Shown here piece by piece: positions 8,167 to 26,724 of a DNA stretch of 64,000 bases. A program made the translations under genes and the position numbers. Positions within the stretch are counted from its first letter, which is position 1. Each line of letters opens with the position of its first letter. Origin of the DNA: Gottschalkia acidurici 9a (GTDB taxonomy: Bacteria > Bacillota > Clostridia > Tissierellales > Gottschalkiaceae); NCBI RefSeq assembly GCF_000299355.1, contig NC_018664.1, positions 1,596,380 through 1,660,379 on the forward strand, in the 5' to 3' direction. The notes below the pieces were generated by a model, which was not told where the DNA came from, ran no database searches, and saw only the letters and a program-made list of their open reading frames with translations.

Positions 8167-8790
8167 TTATAATTTTCTAAACAATCCTATAACCTTACCT
8201 AAAATAGTAACTTCTTTGGTTAATATAGGTGCCATTTGGTCATTTTCAGGCTGCAACCTTACAAAATCTTTTTCTTTAAAAAATCTTTTAACTGTAGCTT
8301 CTTGATTTAATAGAGCTATAACTATATCTCCATTATCAGCTGTATTTTGCTGATGAACTAAAATAAAATCTCCATCAAATATACCCGCATTTATCATACT
8401 CTCTCCTTTTACCCTTAGCATAAAAGGATTATTAGCTCCCTTTAGAAAATTAGCAGGCAAAGGAAATGTATCTTCTATATTTTCTATAGCCAGAATAGGC
8501 TCTCCCGCAGTTACAGATCCTACAATTGGAACATCTACAACTTCTTTTTTAGCATATAAAGTGAGGTCTGTATTCTTATCTAAAATTTCTATTGCTCTTG
8601 GTTTAGTAGGATCTCTTCTTATGTATCCTCTTTTTTCAATTTTCTCTAAATGTCCATGAACACTAGATGTTGACTTTAAGTCTACAGCTGTACATATTTC
8701 TCTCACTGATGGAGGATAGCCCTTAGTCCGAGTTTCTTTTTTTATAAATTCTAATATTTCTATTTGTTTAAAAGACAAATCATCACACAT
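8167..8790 (-). CDS. lexA: SOS repressor LexA
   Basis: 207 residues. An N-terminal winged helix (1-70, with YPPSVREI and STSSVHGHL) joins a self-cleaving peptidase domain. The cleavage bond is Ala95-Gly96 in VTAGEP, with catalytic Ser131 in KGESM and Lys168 in EATVKRF. RecA filaments stimulate its autocleavage, which derepresses DNA-repair genes. The ATG follows GAGGTG. A LexA box overlaps its own -35 element, indicating autoregulation. It converges with the YnbB-like gene. Confidence 0.97.
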
Positions 8791-8822
8791 AGTATCAGCA
8801 CCTCACAATTATAATTTATATC

Positions 8823-8863
8823 ATTATAACATATATTCAAGCAATGTTCAAAACACTTGTTCG
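8823..8863 (-). promoter_or_regulatory. lexA promoter with LexA box over the -35
   Basis: On the minus strand, TTGAAC (8846-8851), a 17-base spacer and TATAAT (8823-8828). A Gram-positive LexA box, CGAACAAGTGTTTT, spans 8850-8863 and overlaps the -35; it has one mismatch to CGAAC-N4-GTTC. Confidence 0.8.
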
Positions 8864-8883
8864 ATTTTAATTTTTTAAATTCA

Positions 8884-8937
8884 TTGACATCAGCTTATAC
8901 TTTTATTATAATTGATATAAATACGAACATAGGTTCT
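8884..8937 (+). promoter_or_regulatory. Consensus plus-strand promoter with LexA box at the predicted +1
   Basis: TTGACA (8884-8889), exactly 17 bases, TATAAT (8907-8912). A LexA box CGAACATAGGTTCT (8924-8937) follows five or more bases later, where transcription should begin. It is divergent from lexA and points toward a short region before aroF, which lies on the opposite strand. It therefore predicts a separate SOS-controlled transcript rather than a lexA element. Confidence 0.75.
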
Positions 8938-8982
8938 GAAAATTTCATTCGTATTTATAGTTTTATAAATAAAGGATATAAC

Positions 8983-9072
8983 ATGTTATATATGTTATAT
9001 ATACACATCCCCTTTACATCCCCGAAACAACAAAAGAAGATCAATTTAATAATTGGTCTTCTTTTGTTGTGA
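8983..9072 (+). CDS. Candidate SOS-induced 29-residue hydrophobic peptide
   Basis: First ATG downstream of the LexA-boxed promoter, with AAAGGA seven bases upstream. It encodes 29 residues: MLYMLYIHIPF, a basic stretch PKQQKK and a hydrophobic tail LIIGLLLL. The size, charge pattern and SOS control recall membrane-active type I toxins such as TisB, but there is no sequence identity. The 3' half coincides with a terminator-like hairpin, so the tail composition may be imposed by RNA structure. It may be real or merely an open frame in a small RNA. Confidence 0.35.
   Translation: MLYMLYIHIPFTSPKQQKKINLIIGLLLL
9027..9070. terminator. Hairpin ending the SOS transcript and/or aroF
   Basis: Arms 9027-9046 and 9051-9070 pair over 20 bases with one G-T wobble and a TAAT loop. 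The T-rich arm CTTCTTTTGTTGT may act as the tail, although no long T run follows. It lies just beyond the aroF stop and at the end of the SOS transcript. Confidence 0.55.
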
Positions 9073-9089
9073 AATTTATAAATTTTTCA

Positions 9090-10115
9090 CTATAATTTTT
9101 CAGCTATGTCATATATTAATTTTTCTGTTTTTTCCCATCCTAGACAAGGGTCTGTTATAGATTTACCATAAACGTCCGGAGAGTCTTGTCTTCCATCAAC
9201 TAAATAGCTTTCTATCATAAGTCCTTTTACTAATTTATTTAACGCTGGAGAGTGAAGTTTACTATGAATAACTTCGCTAGCTATTCTAGTTTGTTCATCG
9301 AATTTTTTCATTGAATTAGAATGATTTGTATCAATTATAATTGCAGGATTTATGTAACCTCTTTTCTCATATTCCTCAGCAACTAGTGCTAGATTTTCAT
9401 AGTGATAATTTGGTATGCAATCACCATGTTGATTAACTGCACCACGAAGAATAGCATGAGCTAGTAGGTTTCCAGACGTCTCAACTTCGTATCCATTATA
9501 TATGAAATTATGAGATATTTGTGCCGCTTTTATAGAGTTAAACATTACACTTATATCTCCACTAGTTGGATTCTTCATACCAGCAGGAATATCCATGCCA
9601 CTTACAGTTAGTCTATGTTGTTGATTTTCTACAGACCTAGCTCCAATTGCTACATAACTTAAAAGATCAGCAACATAAGGATAATTCTCTGGATAAAGCA
9701 TTTCATCAGCAGAAGTAAGACCAGATTCTTTTATTGCTCTTATATGAATTTTTCTTATAGATTTTATACCTTCTGTTACATTAGGTTTTTCATTAGGATC
9801 AGGCTGATGCATCATTCCTTTATAACCCTCTCCTGTGGTTCTAGGCTTATTCGTATATATCCTTGGTATCATTAATATCTTATCTTTTACCTTATCTTGA
9901 ACTAGTGATAATTTATTTACATATTCACAAACTGAGTCCTCGAAATCAGCGGAGCAAGGGCCTATTACAAGTATAAATTTGTTGCTTTTTCCCTCAAAAA
10001 CCTCTCTTATTTCCTTATCTCTTTTAGATTTTATATCTACTAGTGATTTTTCTAAAGGTATAGCATTTATTATTTCTTCAGGACTTGGTATTTTATTTAT
10101 ATATTTAAAACTCAT
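9090..10115 (-). CDS. 3-deoxy-7-phosphoheptulonate synthase (DAHP synthase, class I)
   Basis: 341 residues. It condenses phosphoenolpyruvate and erythrose 4-phosphate, the first step of the shikimate pathway. Class I AroF/G/H-type motifs are present: LVIGPCSADF, PRIYTNKPRTTGEGYKG, ARSVENQQHR and IIDTNHSNS. The ATG follows GGAGG. It stands alone on its strand, with no other aromatic pathway gene nearby. No T-box or leader peptide is obvious in the 200 bases upstream. Confidence 0.95.
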   Translation of the reverse strand: MSFKYINKIPSPEEIINAIPLEKSLVDIKSKRDKEIREVFEGKSNKFILVIGPCSADFEDSVCEYVNKLSLVQDKVKDKILMIPRIYTNKPRTTGEGYKGMMHQPDPNEKPNVTEGIKSIRKIHIRAIKESGLTSADEMLYPENYPYVADLLSYVAIGARSVENQQHRLTVSGMDIPAGMKNPTSGDISVMFNSIKAAQISHNFIYNGYEVETSGNLLAHAILRGAVNQHGDCIPNYHYENLALVAEEYEKRGYINPAIIIDTNHSNSMKKFDEQTRIASEVIHSKLHSPALNKLVKGLMIESYLVDGRQDSPDVYGKSITDPCLGWEKTEKLIYDIAEKL

Positions 10116-10255
10116 ATTTGCAATTCCTCCATTTCTAAATAATTGTACTTAGAATATATAATAACATAATTTATGATAGTTTTCAGAAAATTTTGAAATT
10201 ATAGTATGAATTTAATAGCTACGAAATCTATCTAGTATAAAAGTAGTTGAATAGA

Positions 10256-10284
10256 TTGAAATTATTTGATAAATTATATATATT
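10256..10284 (+). promoter_or_regulatory. Promoter of the 10323 gene
   Basis: TTGAAA (10256-10261), 17 bases, TATATT (10279-10284), some 38 bases before a GAGAGGAGAG ribosome site. Confidence 0.5.
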
Positions 10285-10322
10285 GTGATTTAAACTAAAT
10301 TAAAGAGAGGAGAGCTATTATA

Positions 10323-10613
10323 GTGGTTAATACTGATATTTTATTAGAATACATGTTAAATTTTAGAGTTGAATGTCACCATAGACTTGATATGATGCCG
10401 GGTGATGTAACAGATCTTCCAATATTCATATATGAAGGAGCGCAAAAAGCTTCTAGGGAACAAACTATAGCTGAATTCAATCTTTCTGAAGAAGAGGGGA
10501 AGATACTAGATAAAGTTGGAGAGTTCTTTCTAACAACTATAAAAGAAAGAGATCATTATGGAGAAGCGGATGATCTTACTGTAGAGGCTATAAAATCAGG
10601 TACGTTTTTTTAA
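10323..10613 (+). CDS. Conserved-looking small acidic protein, unknown function
   Basis: 96 residues from a GTG with AGGAG upstream. The sequence is acidic and soluble-looking with no membrane segment or clear domain; notable stretches are LNFRVECHHRLDMMPGD and FNLSEEEGKILDKVG. I do not recognise the family. It is followed by a perfect 19-base hairpin. A decayed copy of its last codons and of this hairpin occurs at about 11943-12064, which implies an older duplication. Confidence 0.6.
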   Translation: MVNTDILLEYMLNFRVECHHRLDMMPGDVTDLPIFIYEGAQKASREQTIAEFNLSEEEGKILDKVGEFFLTTIKERDHYGEADDLTVEAIKSGTFF

Positions 10614-10637
10614 GATTCAAAGATAACTAGAAATTAA

Positions 10638-10685
10638 ATGATTAATTAAGAGTACTATTGTTTTTAAGTACTCTTAATTAATCAT
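10638..10685 (+). terminator. Hairpin after the 10323 gene
   Basis: Perfect 19-base arms (10638-10656 and 10667-10685) with a 10-base T-rich loop. There is no T run after it, so it may be a weak terminator or a structured 3' end. A degenerate copy lies at 12008-12064. Confidence 0.5.
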
Positions 10686-10885
10686 CGTTGCTTTACATAA
10701 TATTTTTATAGACGCCTTTATGTTAAAATTTATTCAGTGTATACTTTCGTTAAAATGAATACTTTACTTGATTTTTTTATATAGTATCTTAATAATCTAT
10801 AAGTCAAAACTTAAAAGTCAAAAGCATGATGAAGTTGCCAAAATACATAATATAAGATATAATTTTTTATAGGAGGCCGATTTAA

Positions 10886-10927
10886 ATGTATAAAAGATTA
10901 AAAAAGTTTAAAAATGTGGCTGTTTAA
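10886..10927 (+). CDS. Possible 13-residue leader peptide before the acetyltransferase
   Basis: MYKRLKKFKNVAV, with a full AGGAGG nine bases upstream of its ATG and a stop 58 bases before the acetyltransferase start. Such a strong ribosome site on so short a basic peptide resembles the leaders of inducible chloramphenicol and macrolide resistance genes. I see no convincing hairpin masking the downstream ribosome site, so the role is tentative. Confidence 0.35.
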   Translation: MYKRLKKFKNVAV

Positions 10928-10985
10928 TATTATTCTTAAATAATTTTTAGTGTTAAAATTTTATTTAGGAATGAGGTATTTGATT

Positions 10986-11639
10986 ATGTTAGAAAATCCT
11001 TTTAAGCATTGGACTGAAATGCAATATCTGAAAGACAAGGTGAAAAATCCGCTTATTGAAGTTGGAGATTATTCTTATTATTCTGGTTACTATGCAGGTG
11101 GAGAGTTTGAAGATATCTGTGTTCGATATATTTGGGGCGATGAAAAATCTCAAAAGATGTATAATCCAATAGAAGACTATGGATGGGTTTTAGATAAGAT
11201 AAAGATAGGAAAATACTGTTGTTTTGCTAGTGGAGTTGTATTTATGATGGGTGGAAATCATAACCATAATCCGAATTGGATTACAGTATATCCTTTTAAA
11301 GAAAAATTTCTTGAATCCTATAAACCAAAGGGTGACACAATTATAGGAAATGACGTATGGATTGGATCTGAAGCTATGATTATGCCAGGAATAAAAGTTG
11401 GTGATGGTGCAATTATTGCCTCGAGATCAGTCGTTACAAAAGATGTTGAATCATATACAATTGTAGGTGGTAATCCTGCTAGATTTATCAAAAAAAGATT
11501 TGAAGAATCTGATATTGAGCTTCTGTTAGAAATGAAATGGTGGGAATGGCCAGAAGAAGATATTAAAAGTGCAATTGACTTATTGTCAAGTTCTGATATC
11601 GATGGATTATATCAATTTTATAAAAATAACATTAAGTAA
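10986..11639 (+). CDS. Hexapeptide xenobiotic acetyltransferase (CatB/Vat-like)
   Basis: 217 residues with a left-handed beta-helix. The N-terminal VGDYSYYSGYYAGGEFED, the loop MMGGNHNHNPNW (His92 or His94 as catalytic base) and GNDVWIGSEAMIMPGIKVGDGA identify the XAT family, which includes type B chloramphenicol and streptogramin A acetyltransferases. The tail is the usual KWWEWPEEDI. The actual drug substrate cannot be read from sequence. ATG 10986 follows AGGAATGAGG; the GTG at 10950 lacks a site. The gene lies between the two copies of the 10323-gene tail and may be an acquisition. Confidence 0.9.
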   Translation: MLENPFKHWTEMQYLKDKVKNPLIEVGDYSYYSGYYAGGEFEDICVRYIWGDEKSQKMYNPIEDYGWVLDKIKIGKYCCFASGVVFMMGGNHNHNPNWITVYPFKEKFLESYKPKGDTIIGNDVWIGSEAMIMPGIKVGDGAIIASRSVVTKDVESYTIVGGNPARFIKKRFEESDIELLLEMKWWEWPEEDIKSAIDLLSSSDIDGLYQFYKNNIK

Positions 11640-11660
11640 TATTCAACAGATTAAGGTAAT

Positions 11661-11690
11661 AAAAAAGAGTCCTAATTAGGGCTCTTTTTT
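11661..11690 (+). terminator. Terminator of the acetyltransferase gene
   Basis: AAAAAAGAGTCC pairs with GGGCTCTTTTTT (one wobble), with a T6 tail. Confidence 0.8.
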
Positions 11691-11770
11691 ATTTGAATAA
11701 ATTTCTGTTTTTTATTCGCTTAACTTAACAGTTAAAGTATCATACCTAGTTTTATAAATATTTATCCTAA

Positions 11771-12064
11771 TTAGCCACTAAGGTTGAATTATATATATTA
11801 TTAGAAATTAGAGATAGGGAAGTAGAACTAGATATCATAATTTTCACATGTAAACTAATACGAACTGTAGGTATAAACGCAGAAGGAAAGATAATAGGTG
11901 GGACTACTAAATTCTTTTTAATATCAATAGAGGGAAAACTCACTGTAAGAAAGTCTATGGTCTTACTATAGAAACTGTAAAATCAGGTAAGTTAGAGAGG
12001 TTTTAAAAATTAATTAAGAATACTGTAAAATCCTATTATTATTTCACGAAAGTGCTCTTAATTA
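11771..12064 (+). pseudogene. Decayed region with a copy of the 10323-gene tail and its hairpin
   Basis: The segment near 11962-11989 matches the end of the 10323 gene at 24 of 28 bases, and in frame gives LTIETVKSGK against LTVEAIKSGT. The following bases repeat TTAATTAAGA...TCTTAATTAA like the intact hairpin, then a similar TTTACATAAT sequence. Before it, 11771-11971 is open with no start codon (VELDIIIFTCKLIRTVG, then GKIIGGTTKFFLIS); the function of that stretch is not recognised. The whole looks like an old, degenerating duplication. Confidence 0.5.
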
Positions 12065-12073
12065 ATTTCATAT

Positions 12074-13054
12074 TTACATAATGTTTTTATGGTTAATTAA
12101 TTTTCTGATAAAGGATTGCTTTTTAACAGCTTTTCTGAGAACTTCATCATCTACGTGAGTATATATTTGTGTAGTAGATACATTTTCATGTCCTAATATT
12201 TGCTGCAAAGCTCTTATATCTACATTTCCATGCTTATACATTAAAGTAGCAGCAGTATGTCTTAACTTATGGGGTGAAAACTTACTTTTATCAAGTCCTA
12301 TTTTCTCTATATATTTTTTAACTGCATACTGTACTGTTTGTGTACTGATTCTATTTTTTCTTTTGCTAATAAACAATGCTTTTTCATCTCTTAAGTTTTC
12401 ATTTGGTCTAACTTGAATGTATTTATTAAGAGCATTTATGCAAGCATCATTCAAGTATACAGTTCTTTCCTTATTACCTTTACCTATTACAGTTAAAGTG
12501 TCACCTCTAATTTTATCTATATCTATGCTAACTAATTCAGAAAGACGAAGCCCACAGTTCAAGAATAGAGTCATAATAGCATAATCTCTTTCTTTAAACT
12601 CTCCATCTATAGAGTCTAAAAAATCCTTTGCTTCATCTAATCTTAGATATATTGGATGTCTATAGTCTATTTTTGGTGATTCTAAATTTTGAGCTGGATT
12701 TTCATCTATTAATTTTACTGTACCATTTAAATATTTAAAAAAAGATTTTAAGCTTGCAACTTTTCTAGCCTTAGCATGGTTTCCGTTATCCATCTCTCTA
12801 TCTACAAAAGATATAAAGGCATGAAGGTCTTGGATATTAACTTTTTTCAAAATGTCTATATCTATATCTGTAATATCAATTTCTTGAAAGGGAATATCCC
12901 TTTTTACTAACCTATATCTAATCTTTAAGAATCTTAAAAATGTTCTTAGATCATAGTGATATTCTTTTACAGTATTTTCAGACTTGCCTCTAATAGTATC
13001 TATATAGTTTAAGAAATCTTCAAGTACAAGGGGTAGTTCATACATATCTATCAT
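12074..13054 (-). CDS. Xer-type tyrosine recombinase
   Basis: 326 residues. An N-terminal SAM-like core-binding domain (about 1-120) and a C-terminal catalytic domain. All active-site residues are present: Arg170 (GLRLSEL), Lys192 (GKGNKER), His262 and Arg265 (HKLRHTAA), His289 (LGHENVS) and nucleophile Tyr298 (IYTHV). Similarity to XerC/XerD suggests chromosome dimer resolution rather than phage integration, and no phage genes are near. ATG 13054 follows AAGGATGATTG. A long palindrome starts 40 bases upstream, and dif-like sequences lie 480 and 1440 bases upstream. Confidence 0.88.
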   Translation of the reverse strand: MIDMYELPLVLEDFLNYIDTIRGKSENTVKEYHYDLRTFLRFLKIRYRLVKRDIPFQEIDITDIDIDILKKVNIQDLHAFISFVDREMDNGNHAKARKVASLKSFFKYLNGTVKLIDENPAQNLESPKIDYRHPIYLRLDEAKDFLDSIDGEFKERDYAIMTLFLNCGLRLSELVSIDIDKIRGDTLTVIGKGNKERTVYLNDACINALNKYIQVRPNENLRDEKALFISKRKNRISTQTVQYAVKKYIEKIGLDKSKFSPHKLRHTAATLMYKHGNVDIRALQQILGHENVSTTQIYTHVDDEVLRKAVKKQSFIRKLINHKNIM

Positions 13055-13094
13055 TTACAATCATCCTTTCTATACTATTACTCTATTTTTATGC

Positions 13095-13130
13095 TCTAAT
13101 TAAACAAAATATACATTTTGTTTAATTAGA
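13095..13130. repeat. Palindrome upstream of the Xer gene, nested in a 20-base direct repeat
   Basis: Perfect 16-base arms (13095-13110, 13115-13130) with the loop ATAC. Read as 11-6-11 it is ATTAAACAAAA, TATACA, TTTTGTTTAAT, a Xer-like layout. The flanks 13082-13101 and 13133-13152 are direct repeats with 17 of 20 bases identical. It may be an operator of the recombinase gene, a recombination site or a terminator. Confidence 0.6.
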
Positions 13131-13530
13131 TTTCTATATTTATGTCCTAATTTCCTCTTTTTTAAGCCAAAATTATTTTCTGTTTAATCTCTTCAAAAAA
13201 ATAAGCTCTAGTTTTAACTATATATGGCTTGTTTTTATTAATACATATAAATACATGATTCGCATATTAAAACTTAAATACAGTACATTTATAGCGATTT
13301 GAATCGACATTCCATTATGTATCTACAATGTCTAAATGAAATCATTATCTAATTATGTATATTTAACATGCAATTAGACTCGATCTGATATTTTCAGTAC
13401 CAATACTCCTTTATTTTCCCAAGCGAAAAAATGTTTCTCATTTACATTTATTTCTTATATCACTTTAGAGAATACTGTCGTTTTTTAATTAAACTCTTCC
13501 CCTCTATTCCCTATCCTTTTTTCAGGTTTT

Positions 13531-25559: not shown

Positions 25560-26633
25560 TTATTCAGTCTTATTATCTTTAATATTAGAATTTTGTGCTT
25601 GAACTGTAGCGTCCTTTTCAACTATATTTTTATTATCCTGTACTGACTCCTGTAATCCAAACTTTTCTCTTATTTTCTTATCTATTTCCTTTGTAACATC
25701 TGGATTATCTCTTAAGAATTCTTTTGAATTTTCTCTACCTTGACCTAGCCTATGTGATCCATAGCTATACCAGGATCCAGACTTGTTTATAATATCACAA
25801 TTAGCACCTACATCTAGTATATTACCCTCTCTAGATATACCTGTACCATACATTATATCTACTTCAGCTTGTTTAAAAGGTGCCGCTACCTTATTCTTAA
25901 CAACCTTTATTCTAGTTCTACTTCCTATAACTTCTTCACCTTGTTTTAATGCTTCAATTCTTCTTACATCAAGTCTTACAGATGCGTAGAACTTTAGTGC
26001 TCTACCTCCAGTAGTCGTCTCTGGACTTCCAAACATTACACCTACTTTTTCTCTTAGCTGATTTATAAATATAGCAGTTGTATTAGATCTCTTTATAGCT
26101 CCCGCAAGCTTTCTAAGCGCTTGAGACATTAATCTAGCCTGTAATCCTATATGACTGTCCCCCATTTCTCCTTCAATCTCAGCCTTAGGAACCAATGCTG
26201 CTACTGAGTCTACTACTATTATATCTACAGCACCACTTCTTACTAGAGCTTCAGCTATTTCAAGTGCTTGCTCTCCAGTATCAGGTTGTGATACTATTAG
26301 GTTTTCTATATCTACCCCTAAATTCTTAGCATATTGTGGATCAAGTGCATGCTCTGCATCTATGAACGCTGCAACTCCTCCAATTTTTTGATGCTCCGCG
26401 ATAGCATGAAGAGCTACAGTAGTTTTACCAGAAGATTCTGGTCCATATATTTCTATTATTCTTCCTCTAGGAAAACCTCCTATACCTATAGCTATATCTA
26501 AGTCTAGAGCCCCTGTAGAAACTGCTTCCACGTTTAATTTAGATTCTTCACCCAGAGTCATTATAGACCCTTTTCCAAACTGTTTTTCGATTTGACTTAT
26601 AGCCATTTCTAATGCTTTAGCTTTTTCACTCAT
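25560..26633 (-). CDS. recA: Recombinase RecA
   Basis: 357 residues. Forms filaments on single-stranded DNA, drives strand exchange and triggers LexA cleavage. Walker [10 protein letters not shown] (near 65), [16 protein letters not shown], the L2 loop region [14 protein letters not shown] and [10 protein letters not shown] are all normal. The C-terminal tail (from about 330) is low complexity and acidic. ATG follows GGGAGAAT, part of which lies in a CCCAGAT/ATCTGGG hairpin. A LexA box sits in the promoter. cinA is directly upstream, as in Bacillus. Confidence 0.98.
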
Positions 26634-26674: not shown

Positions 26675-26724
26675 CGAACGTTTGTTCCTATATGTATTAT
26701 AAATCAGTTTTGAAATATAGTCAA
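26675..26724 (-). promoter_or_regulatory. recA promoter with LexA box
   Basis: Minus strand TTGACT (26719-26724), 17 bases, TATAAT (26696-26701), then a LexA box GGAACAAACGTTCG (26675-26688) just after the -10. The same operator type as at lexA confirms the local SOS consensus. Confidence 0.85.

What the first reader, a model, noticed from the sequence alone, without database searches (positions are those of the whole stretch)
8884..9072. SOS-regulated small transcript and possible hydrophobic peptide beside lexA
A perfect TTGACA-17-TATAAT promoter has a LexA box at its start site and faces away from lexA. The resulting transcript would be only about 150 bases and ends in a 20-base hairpin before the convergent aroF. 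Its first ATG, with AAAGGA, opens a 29-residue peptide with a basic centre and hydrophobic ends, similar in character to the LexA-controlled toxin TisB. No larger gene explains the promoter.
Basis: partly seen in the sequence, partly recalled or inferred. Interest (0 to 1): 0.6.

Follow-up and report, generated by a model that had tools for sequence, protein, structure and literature searches.

The report
Orphaned SOS promoter beside lexA
Beside the DNA-damage repressor gene lexA sits a perfect, damage-switched promoter that in most relatives drives a cell-division brake (yneA); here that gene is gone, so the promoter would make only a short RNA that probably encodes nothing.

Summary
The promoter (TTGACA-17-TATAAT, 8884-8912) and LexA box (GAACATAGGTTC, 8925-8936) are real and far beyond chance. 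In 31 of 38 lexA loci of the same order, and about 59 of 80 named Clostridia loci, the same slot holds a LexA-controlled promoter of near-identical layout driving yneA, the LysM/transmembrane SOS division suppressor. This genome has no yneA; its slot is filled by aroF and neighbours, between lexA and xerC. The element is therefore an orphaned yneA promoter. It keeps the -35, the -10 and the downstream operator intact, but has lost the operator in the spacer. The remaining transcript is about 150 nt and structured. The 29-residue "TisB-like" peptide is poorly supported: its basic centre and leucine tail are the translated arms of the hairpin beside aroF's stop codon, its own stop codon begins on that hairpin's last base, and it has no transmembrane segment, homologue or predicted antisense partner. 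Most likely: an SOS-inducible leftover promoter making a non-coding RNA. A co-opted sRNA or micro-peptide is not excluded, because among yneA-less loci only this one keeps promoter plus box. No congener was available to decide.

The parts
8884..8889 (+). -35 hexamer TTGACA of the orphaned yneA-type promoter
   Evidence: 12/12 promoter; only perfect site in the window; comparable position relative to lexA in relatives with yneA
8890..8906 (+). 17-nt spacer; in yneA-bearing relatives it holds a LexA box, which here has decayed (4/8)
8907..8912 (+). -10 hexamer TATAAT
8925..8936 (+). LexA box GAACATAGGTTC (8/8), at about +6 to +17
8916..8959 (+). 5' stem-loop of the expected transcript, 12-bp perfect arms TATAAATACGAA/TTCGTATTTATA
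   Evidence: fold -10.0 kcal/mol against -3.4 +/- 1.8 in shuffles
8983..9072 (+). 29-codon ORF (MLYMLYIHIPFTSPKQQKKINLIIGLLLL), judged probably not a gene; weak AAAGGA at 8971-8976
9027..9070 (.). 20-bp hairpin beginning 20 nt after the aroF stop codon; probable shared or aroF terminator, supplies codons 16-29 of the ORF
8167..8790 (-). lexA (207 aa, Peptidase_S24 + LexA DNA-binding domains)
   Evidence: TIGR00498, 241.5 bits
8851..8862 (-). lexA's own LexA box GAACAAGTGTTT, by the lexA promoter (8851-8823)
9090..10115 (-). aroF (DAHP synthase), convergent; occupies the slot where relatives have yneA

Best explanation
The feature is the SOS promoter of the ancestral lexA/yneA divergent pair, orphaned when a rearrangement removed yneA and placed aroF and its neighbours beside lexA. 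LexA should still repress it through the operator at 8925-8936. After DNA damage it should fire rightward and make a short (about 150 nt), structured RNA that stops at or near the hairpin shared with aroF. That RNA most likely encodes no functional protein. Shown here: promoter, box, homologous position and layout in relatives, absence of yneA, rearranged neighbourhood. Inferred: LexA binding, inducibility, the transcript's ends, and lack of function.
For: 31 of 38 order-level lexA loci carry a divergent YneA-type ORF behind a promoter of at least 11/12 with a LexA box 7-18 nt after the -10 (at least 7/8); this locus has 12/12 and 8/8, gap 12 nt. About 59 of 80 named Clostridia lexA loci show the same pair. 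In the same-family genome G002 that ORF scores 58.7 bits against NCBIfam YneA (cutoff 60) and passes Pfam LysM. This genome (2 contigs, 98% complete) has no YneA hit, and its LysM domains sit only in ORFs of 238 aa or more. Synteny: the usual lexA-yneA-xerC has become lexA-[promoter]-aroF-96aa-acetyltransferase-xerC. No yneA remnant in 8791-13150 at E < 0.2. CGAACNNNNGTTC otherwise marks recA, the uvrB/uvrA junction and a recD2-linked gene. Published: a yneA-type gene is divergent from lexA with LexA sites in C. thermocellum (PMC8457756), and the slot commonly holds SOS division inhibitors (PMC6851548).
Against: A useless promoter should decay, yet -35, -10 and one operator are perfect while the spacer operator is randomised. 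Of 6 other yneA-less loci in the order, none keeps promoter plus box, and none of about 16 informative yneA-less loci among the named Clostridia does. So loss was either recent or the transcript does something. No sequence at congener distance was available.
Confidence: 0.75

Rival explanations
1. The promoter was kept because its RNA has been co-opted as an SOS-induced regulatory small RNA, stable through its 5' stem-loop and 3' hairpin, acting by base-pairing or as antisense to the aroF 3' end if it reads through.
For: Promoter and box perfect despite loss of the gene and of the spacer operator. The RNA folds far better than shuffles (z -7.2), with a 5' stem-loop unmatched in 200 shuffles. 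No T-run follows the hairpin, so read-through into aroF antisense is possible.
Against: Most of the folding energy is the hairpin next to aroF: without it the fold is near ordinary (13 of 200 shuffles as good). No sequence conservation in 248 other genomes of the order, no Rfam match.
Confidence: 0.15
2. The 29-residue ORF encodes an SOS-induced membrane micro-peptide: a TisB-like toxin, or a minimal replacement for YneA in the slot that usually holds a division inhibitor.
For: SD-like AAAGGA and first ATG open for 29 codons: 0.2% of shuffles, or 0.9% when the hairpin is kept and the rest shuffled. The slot holds unrelated small membrane division inhibitors in other Gram-positives (PMC6851548). 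The start region is predicted to be in a stem, as the tisB RBS is sequestered (PMC7708055).
Against: Best 19-residue hydropathy 0.51, so no membrane-spanning segment. Codons 16-29 lie in the aroF-side hairpin, two of whose three frames are open anyway. The stop codon starts on the last base of the hairpin, so a terminated RNA would barely contain it. No family or homologue. No antisense promoter of 9/12 or better. The SD and ATG could simply be the old yneA start.
Confidence: 0.07
3. The box at 8925 is kept mainly as an auxiliary operator for lexA autoregulation and the rightward transcript is incidental.
For: It lies about 65-75 bp from lexA's own operator (8851-8862) and the spacer operator has been lost while this one stayed.
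Against: It sits exactly at the start site of the perfect divergent promoter, and that promoter is itself perfect, which this idea does not need; most other yneA-less loci keep only lexA's own box.
Confidence: 0.05

Closest known systems
lexA/yneA divergent SOS promoter (Bacillus subtilis YneA; Clostridium thermocellum Clo1313_1450)
   Same: Divergent from lexA, consensus promoter with 17-nt spacer, LexA box just downstream of the -10, comparable distance from lexA.
   Different: No yneA gene behind it or detected anywhere in the genome; the LexA box normally in the spacer is gone; aroF is convergent instead.
tisB/istR-1 (E. coli type I toxin-antitoxin)
   Same: LexA-controlled short transcript with a 29-codon ORF and a start region predicted to be paired.
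   Different: No 20-residue transmembrane helix, no antisense RNA promoter found, 5' leader of about 64 nt (too short for a standby site about 100 nt upstream), ORF running through a terminator-like hairpin, no homology.
SosA (Staphylococcus) / DivS (Corynebacterium) SOS division inhibitors
   Same: Position beside lexA under LexA control.
   Different: Those are real ORFs (SosA 77 aa, conserved across staphylococci) with a membrane segment; this ORF has neither conservation nor a membrane segment.

Membership tests
lexA/yneA divergent SOS locus | Consensus promoter divergent from lexA with a LexA box 7-18 nt after the -10 | tested here: met
   12/12 promoter and 8/8 box, gap 12 nt; 31 of 38 relatives share the layout
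lexA/yneA divergent SOS locus | LexA box inside the -35/-10 spacer | tested here: not met
   4/8 here, at least 6/8 in all 31 yneA-bearing loci
lexA/yneA divergent SOS locus | LysM/transmembrane yneA ORF behind the promoter | tested here: not met
   No hit in the genome, none in 8791-13150 even at maximum sensitivity; LysM only in ORFs of 238 aa or more
TisB-type type I toxin | LexA-controlled promoter | tested here: met
   Sequence level only
TisB-type type I toxin | Small peptide with a central transmembrane helix (20 residues in TisB, PMC11449926) | tested here: not met
   Maximum 19-residue hydropathy 0.51; two short hydrophobic runs split by PKQQKK
TisB-type type I toxin | Antisense RNA antitoxin | tested here: inconclusive
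   No minus-strand promoter of 9/12 or better between 8900 and 9066; a trans-encoded or weak one cannot be excluded
TisB-type type I toxin | Sequestered RBS with a standby site about 100 nt upstream (PMC7708055) | tested here: not met
   RBS predicted paired but the leader is only about 64 nt
TisB-type type I toxin | Toxicity on expression, membrane depolarisation | not testable with these tools
   Needs experiment
SosA/DivS-type SOS division inhibitor | Single membrane-spanning segment and conservation in relatives | tested here: not met
   Hydropathy; no similar DNA in 248 other genomes of the order

The most novel reading that the evidence does not exclude
After yneA was lost, its promoter was kept by selection and now drives a new SOS product, either a structured regulatory RNA or a micro-peptide, that took over or replaced part of the DNA-damage checkpoint.
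Probability: 0.18. Interest if true: 0.6.

Novelty: new variant of a known kind. Interest (0 to 1): 0.32.

Why it matters
The lexA-adjacent slot is the standard home of Gram-positive SOS division inhibitors. Here the switch remains and the brake is gone. That gives a test case for what happens to a strong stress promoter once its gene is lost, and raises the question of how this organism halts division after DNA damage. It also shows how a plausible toxin-like ORF can arise from translating the A-rich and T-rich arms of a terminator-like hairpin.

Tried and rejected
Rfam scan of the whole window: no match. The first genome-contig scan with LexA alone gave nothing, so the second used a LexA alignment. 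DNA search of the 211-bp element in 249 genomes: only AT-rich chance matches outside its own locus. Sensitive search for a yneA remnant in 8791-13150: best E 0.27, noise. Considered and rejected: the whole 71-codon TTG frame (8857-9072), which begins upstream of the -35; and a transmembrane peptide (hydropathy). The strong fold (z -7.2) as evidence of an RNA family was discounted, because it rests mainly on the hairpin next to aroF. The retention argument (20 of 20 promoter and operator positions intact while the spacer box is random) is suggestive only, since the date of loss is unknown. The motif GAACNNNNGTTC alone is not evidence, being at chance frequency genome-wide.

Full report
What is there. 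At 8884-8912 the + strand reads TTGACA, 17 nt, TATAAT, the only perfect 12/12 promoter of that spacing in the 64-kb window (0.12 expected). A palindromic LexA box, GAACATAGGTTC, lies at 8925-8936, about 6 nt after the expected start. The box motif alone is at chance frequency in the 3.1-Mb genome (19 sites, 20 for the reversed control). The stricter CGAACNNNNGTTC has only four distinct sites: this one, one upstream of recA (window 26676), one between uvrB and uvrA, and one in the promoter of a gene next to recD2. So the box fits a working LexA regulon. The joint chance of a perfect promoter with an exact box 7-18 nt behind it is about 4e-4 per genome.

What it is. Comparison with relatives explains it. 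LexA loci were collected from 60 related genomes and 30 of them re-read around the divergent side. Together with eight more loci from genomes that have lexA but gave no nearby hit in the YneA profile search, 38 loci were scored. In 31 of them the gene divergent from lexA is a roughly 100-residue protein of the YneA type (membrane segment plus LysM domain). All 31 have a promoter of at least 11/12 with one LexA box in the spacer and another 7-18 nt after the -10. The copy in G002, the nearest genome by LexA identity (76%), scores 58.7 bits against NCBIfam's YneA model (cutoff 60) and passes Pfam LysM. Eighty named Clostridia loci give the same picture: 59 clear YneA neighbours, most with near-identical promoters (a few of these are the same genomes as in the first set). 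Published work reports the same divergent pair under LexA in Clostridium thermocellum (PMC8457756) and describes the slot as the usual home of Gram-positive SOS division inhibitors (PMC6851548).

The gene is missing here. A YneA profile finds nothing in this genome (2 contigs, 98% complete). Its LysM domains are all in ORFs of 238 residues or more, and the region from lexA to xerC holds no remnant at maximum sensitivity. In most relatives the order is lexA, yneA, xerC. Here it is lexA, promoter, aroF, a 96-aa ORF, an acetyltransferase, xerC. The -35, the -10 and the downstream operator are intact; the spacer operator is gone (4/8). The feature is best read as an orphaned yneA promoter.

What it would make. 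The RNA from about 8919 would be about 150 nt: a 12-bp 5' stem-loop, an AU-rich hairpin over the possible start codon, and a 20-bp hairpin that begins 20 nt after the aroF stop codon. The z-score of -7.2 comes mainly from the last hairpin; without it 13 of 200 shuffles fold as well. That hairpin lacks a following T-run, so the 3' end is not certain and some read-through antisense to aroF is possible.

The peptide. The 29-codon ORF has an SD-like AAAGGA. Such an ORF arises in 0.2% of full shuffles, and in 0.9% when the hairpin is kept and the rest shuffled. Its codons 16-29 are the two arms of the hairpin: the A-rich arm reads KQQKK, the T-rich arm LLLL, and two of the three frames through it are open anyway. 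The stop codon begins on the hairpin's last base. The best 19-residue hydropathy is 0.51, against 2.1-2.2 for two YneA proteins, so it is not a membrane peptide like TisB, which has a 20-residue transmembrane helix (PMC11449926). No antisense promoter is seen, the leader is too short for a tisB-like standby site (PMC7708055), and nothing similar exists in 248 other genomes of the order. The SD and ATG could be the old yneA start running into aroF's downstream sequence; this is inference.

Why it is not fully closed. None of the other yneA-less loci examined (6 in the order, about 16 informative named ones) keeps both promoter and box. Twenty specified positions are intact while the neighbouring operator is random. 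Either yneA was lost recently, or the promoter is under selection for a new product (small RNA, peptide) or as a second operator for lexA. No genome of the same genus was held, so this cannot be decided here.

Verdict. An orphaned stress promoter is a modest but clean finding.

Noticed in passing
G000:C2:242635-243263 (L165, L142); relatives L166, L167, L169, L171, L172, L173: A 193-aa protein gene near recD2 has a LexA box inside its promoter spacer (TTGACATCGAACACATGTTCGATTAAAAT). The family is present in 43 of 60 relatives and 7 of 10 loci read have an 8/8 box upstream, mostly in the same spacer position. Pfam gives only a sub-threshold ComK match (4 of 9 members, best E 0.0012). It may be an undescribed SOS-controlled, ComK-like family.
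   Followed up: partly
window 26676-26687 (recA at about 25563-26633, minus strand); G000:C2:2157921: CGAACNNNNGTTC boxes upstream of recA and at the uvrB/uvrA junction, so the genome has a conventional Firmicute-type LexA regulon.
   Followed up: yes
Loci L131, L132, L133, L136 (genomes G031, G043, G017, G101): Diverged LysM-type genes beside lexA; at least three of these genomes gave no YneA profile hit, so one search's count of 172 of 249 genomes with yneA is a lower bound.
   Followed up: partly
L145 and L149 near position 1501: Two copies of a transposase-type ORF (MIKSVKIRLLPTKEQ...) each carry a GAAC-N4-GTTC site some 60-70 nt upstream of the start; this could be chance, or SOS control of the element.
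   Followed up: no
window 9090-13054 compared with L138 and L139: aroF, a 96-aa unknown ORF, a hexapeptide acetyltransferase (CatB/Vat-like) and xerC are reshuffled around lexA among the genomes of this family; in G001 lexA itself faces the other way.
   Followed up: partly
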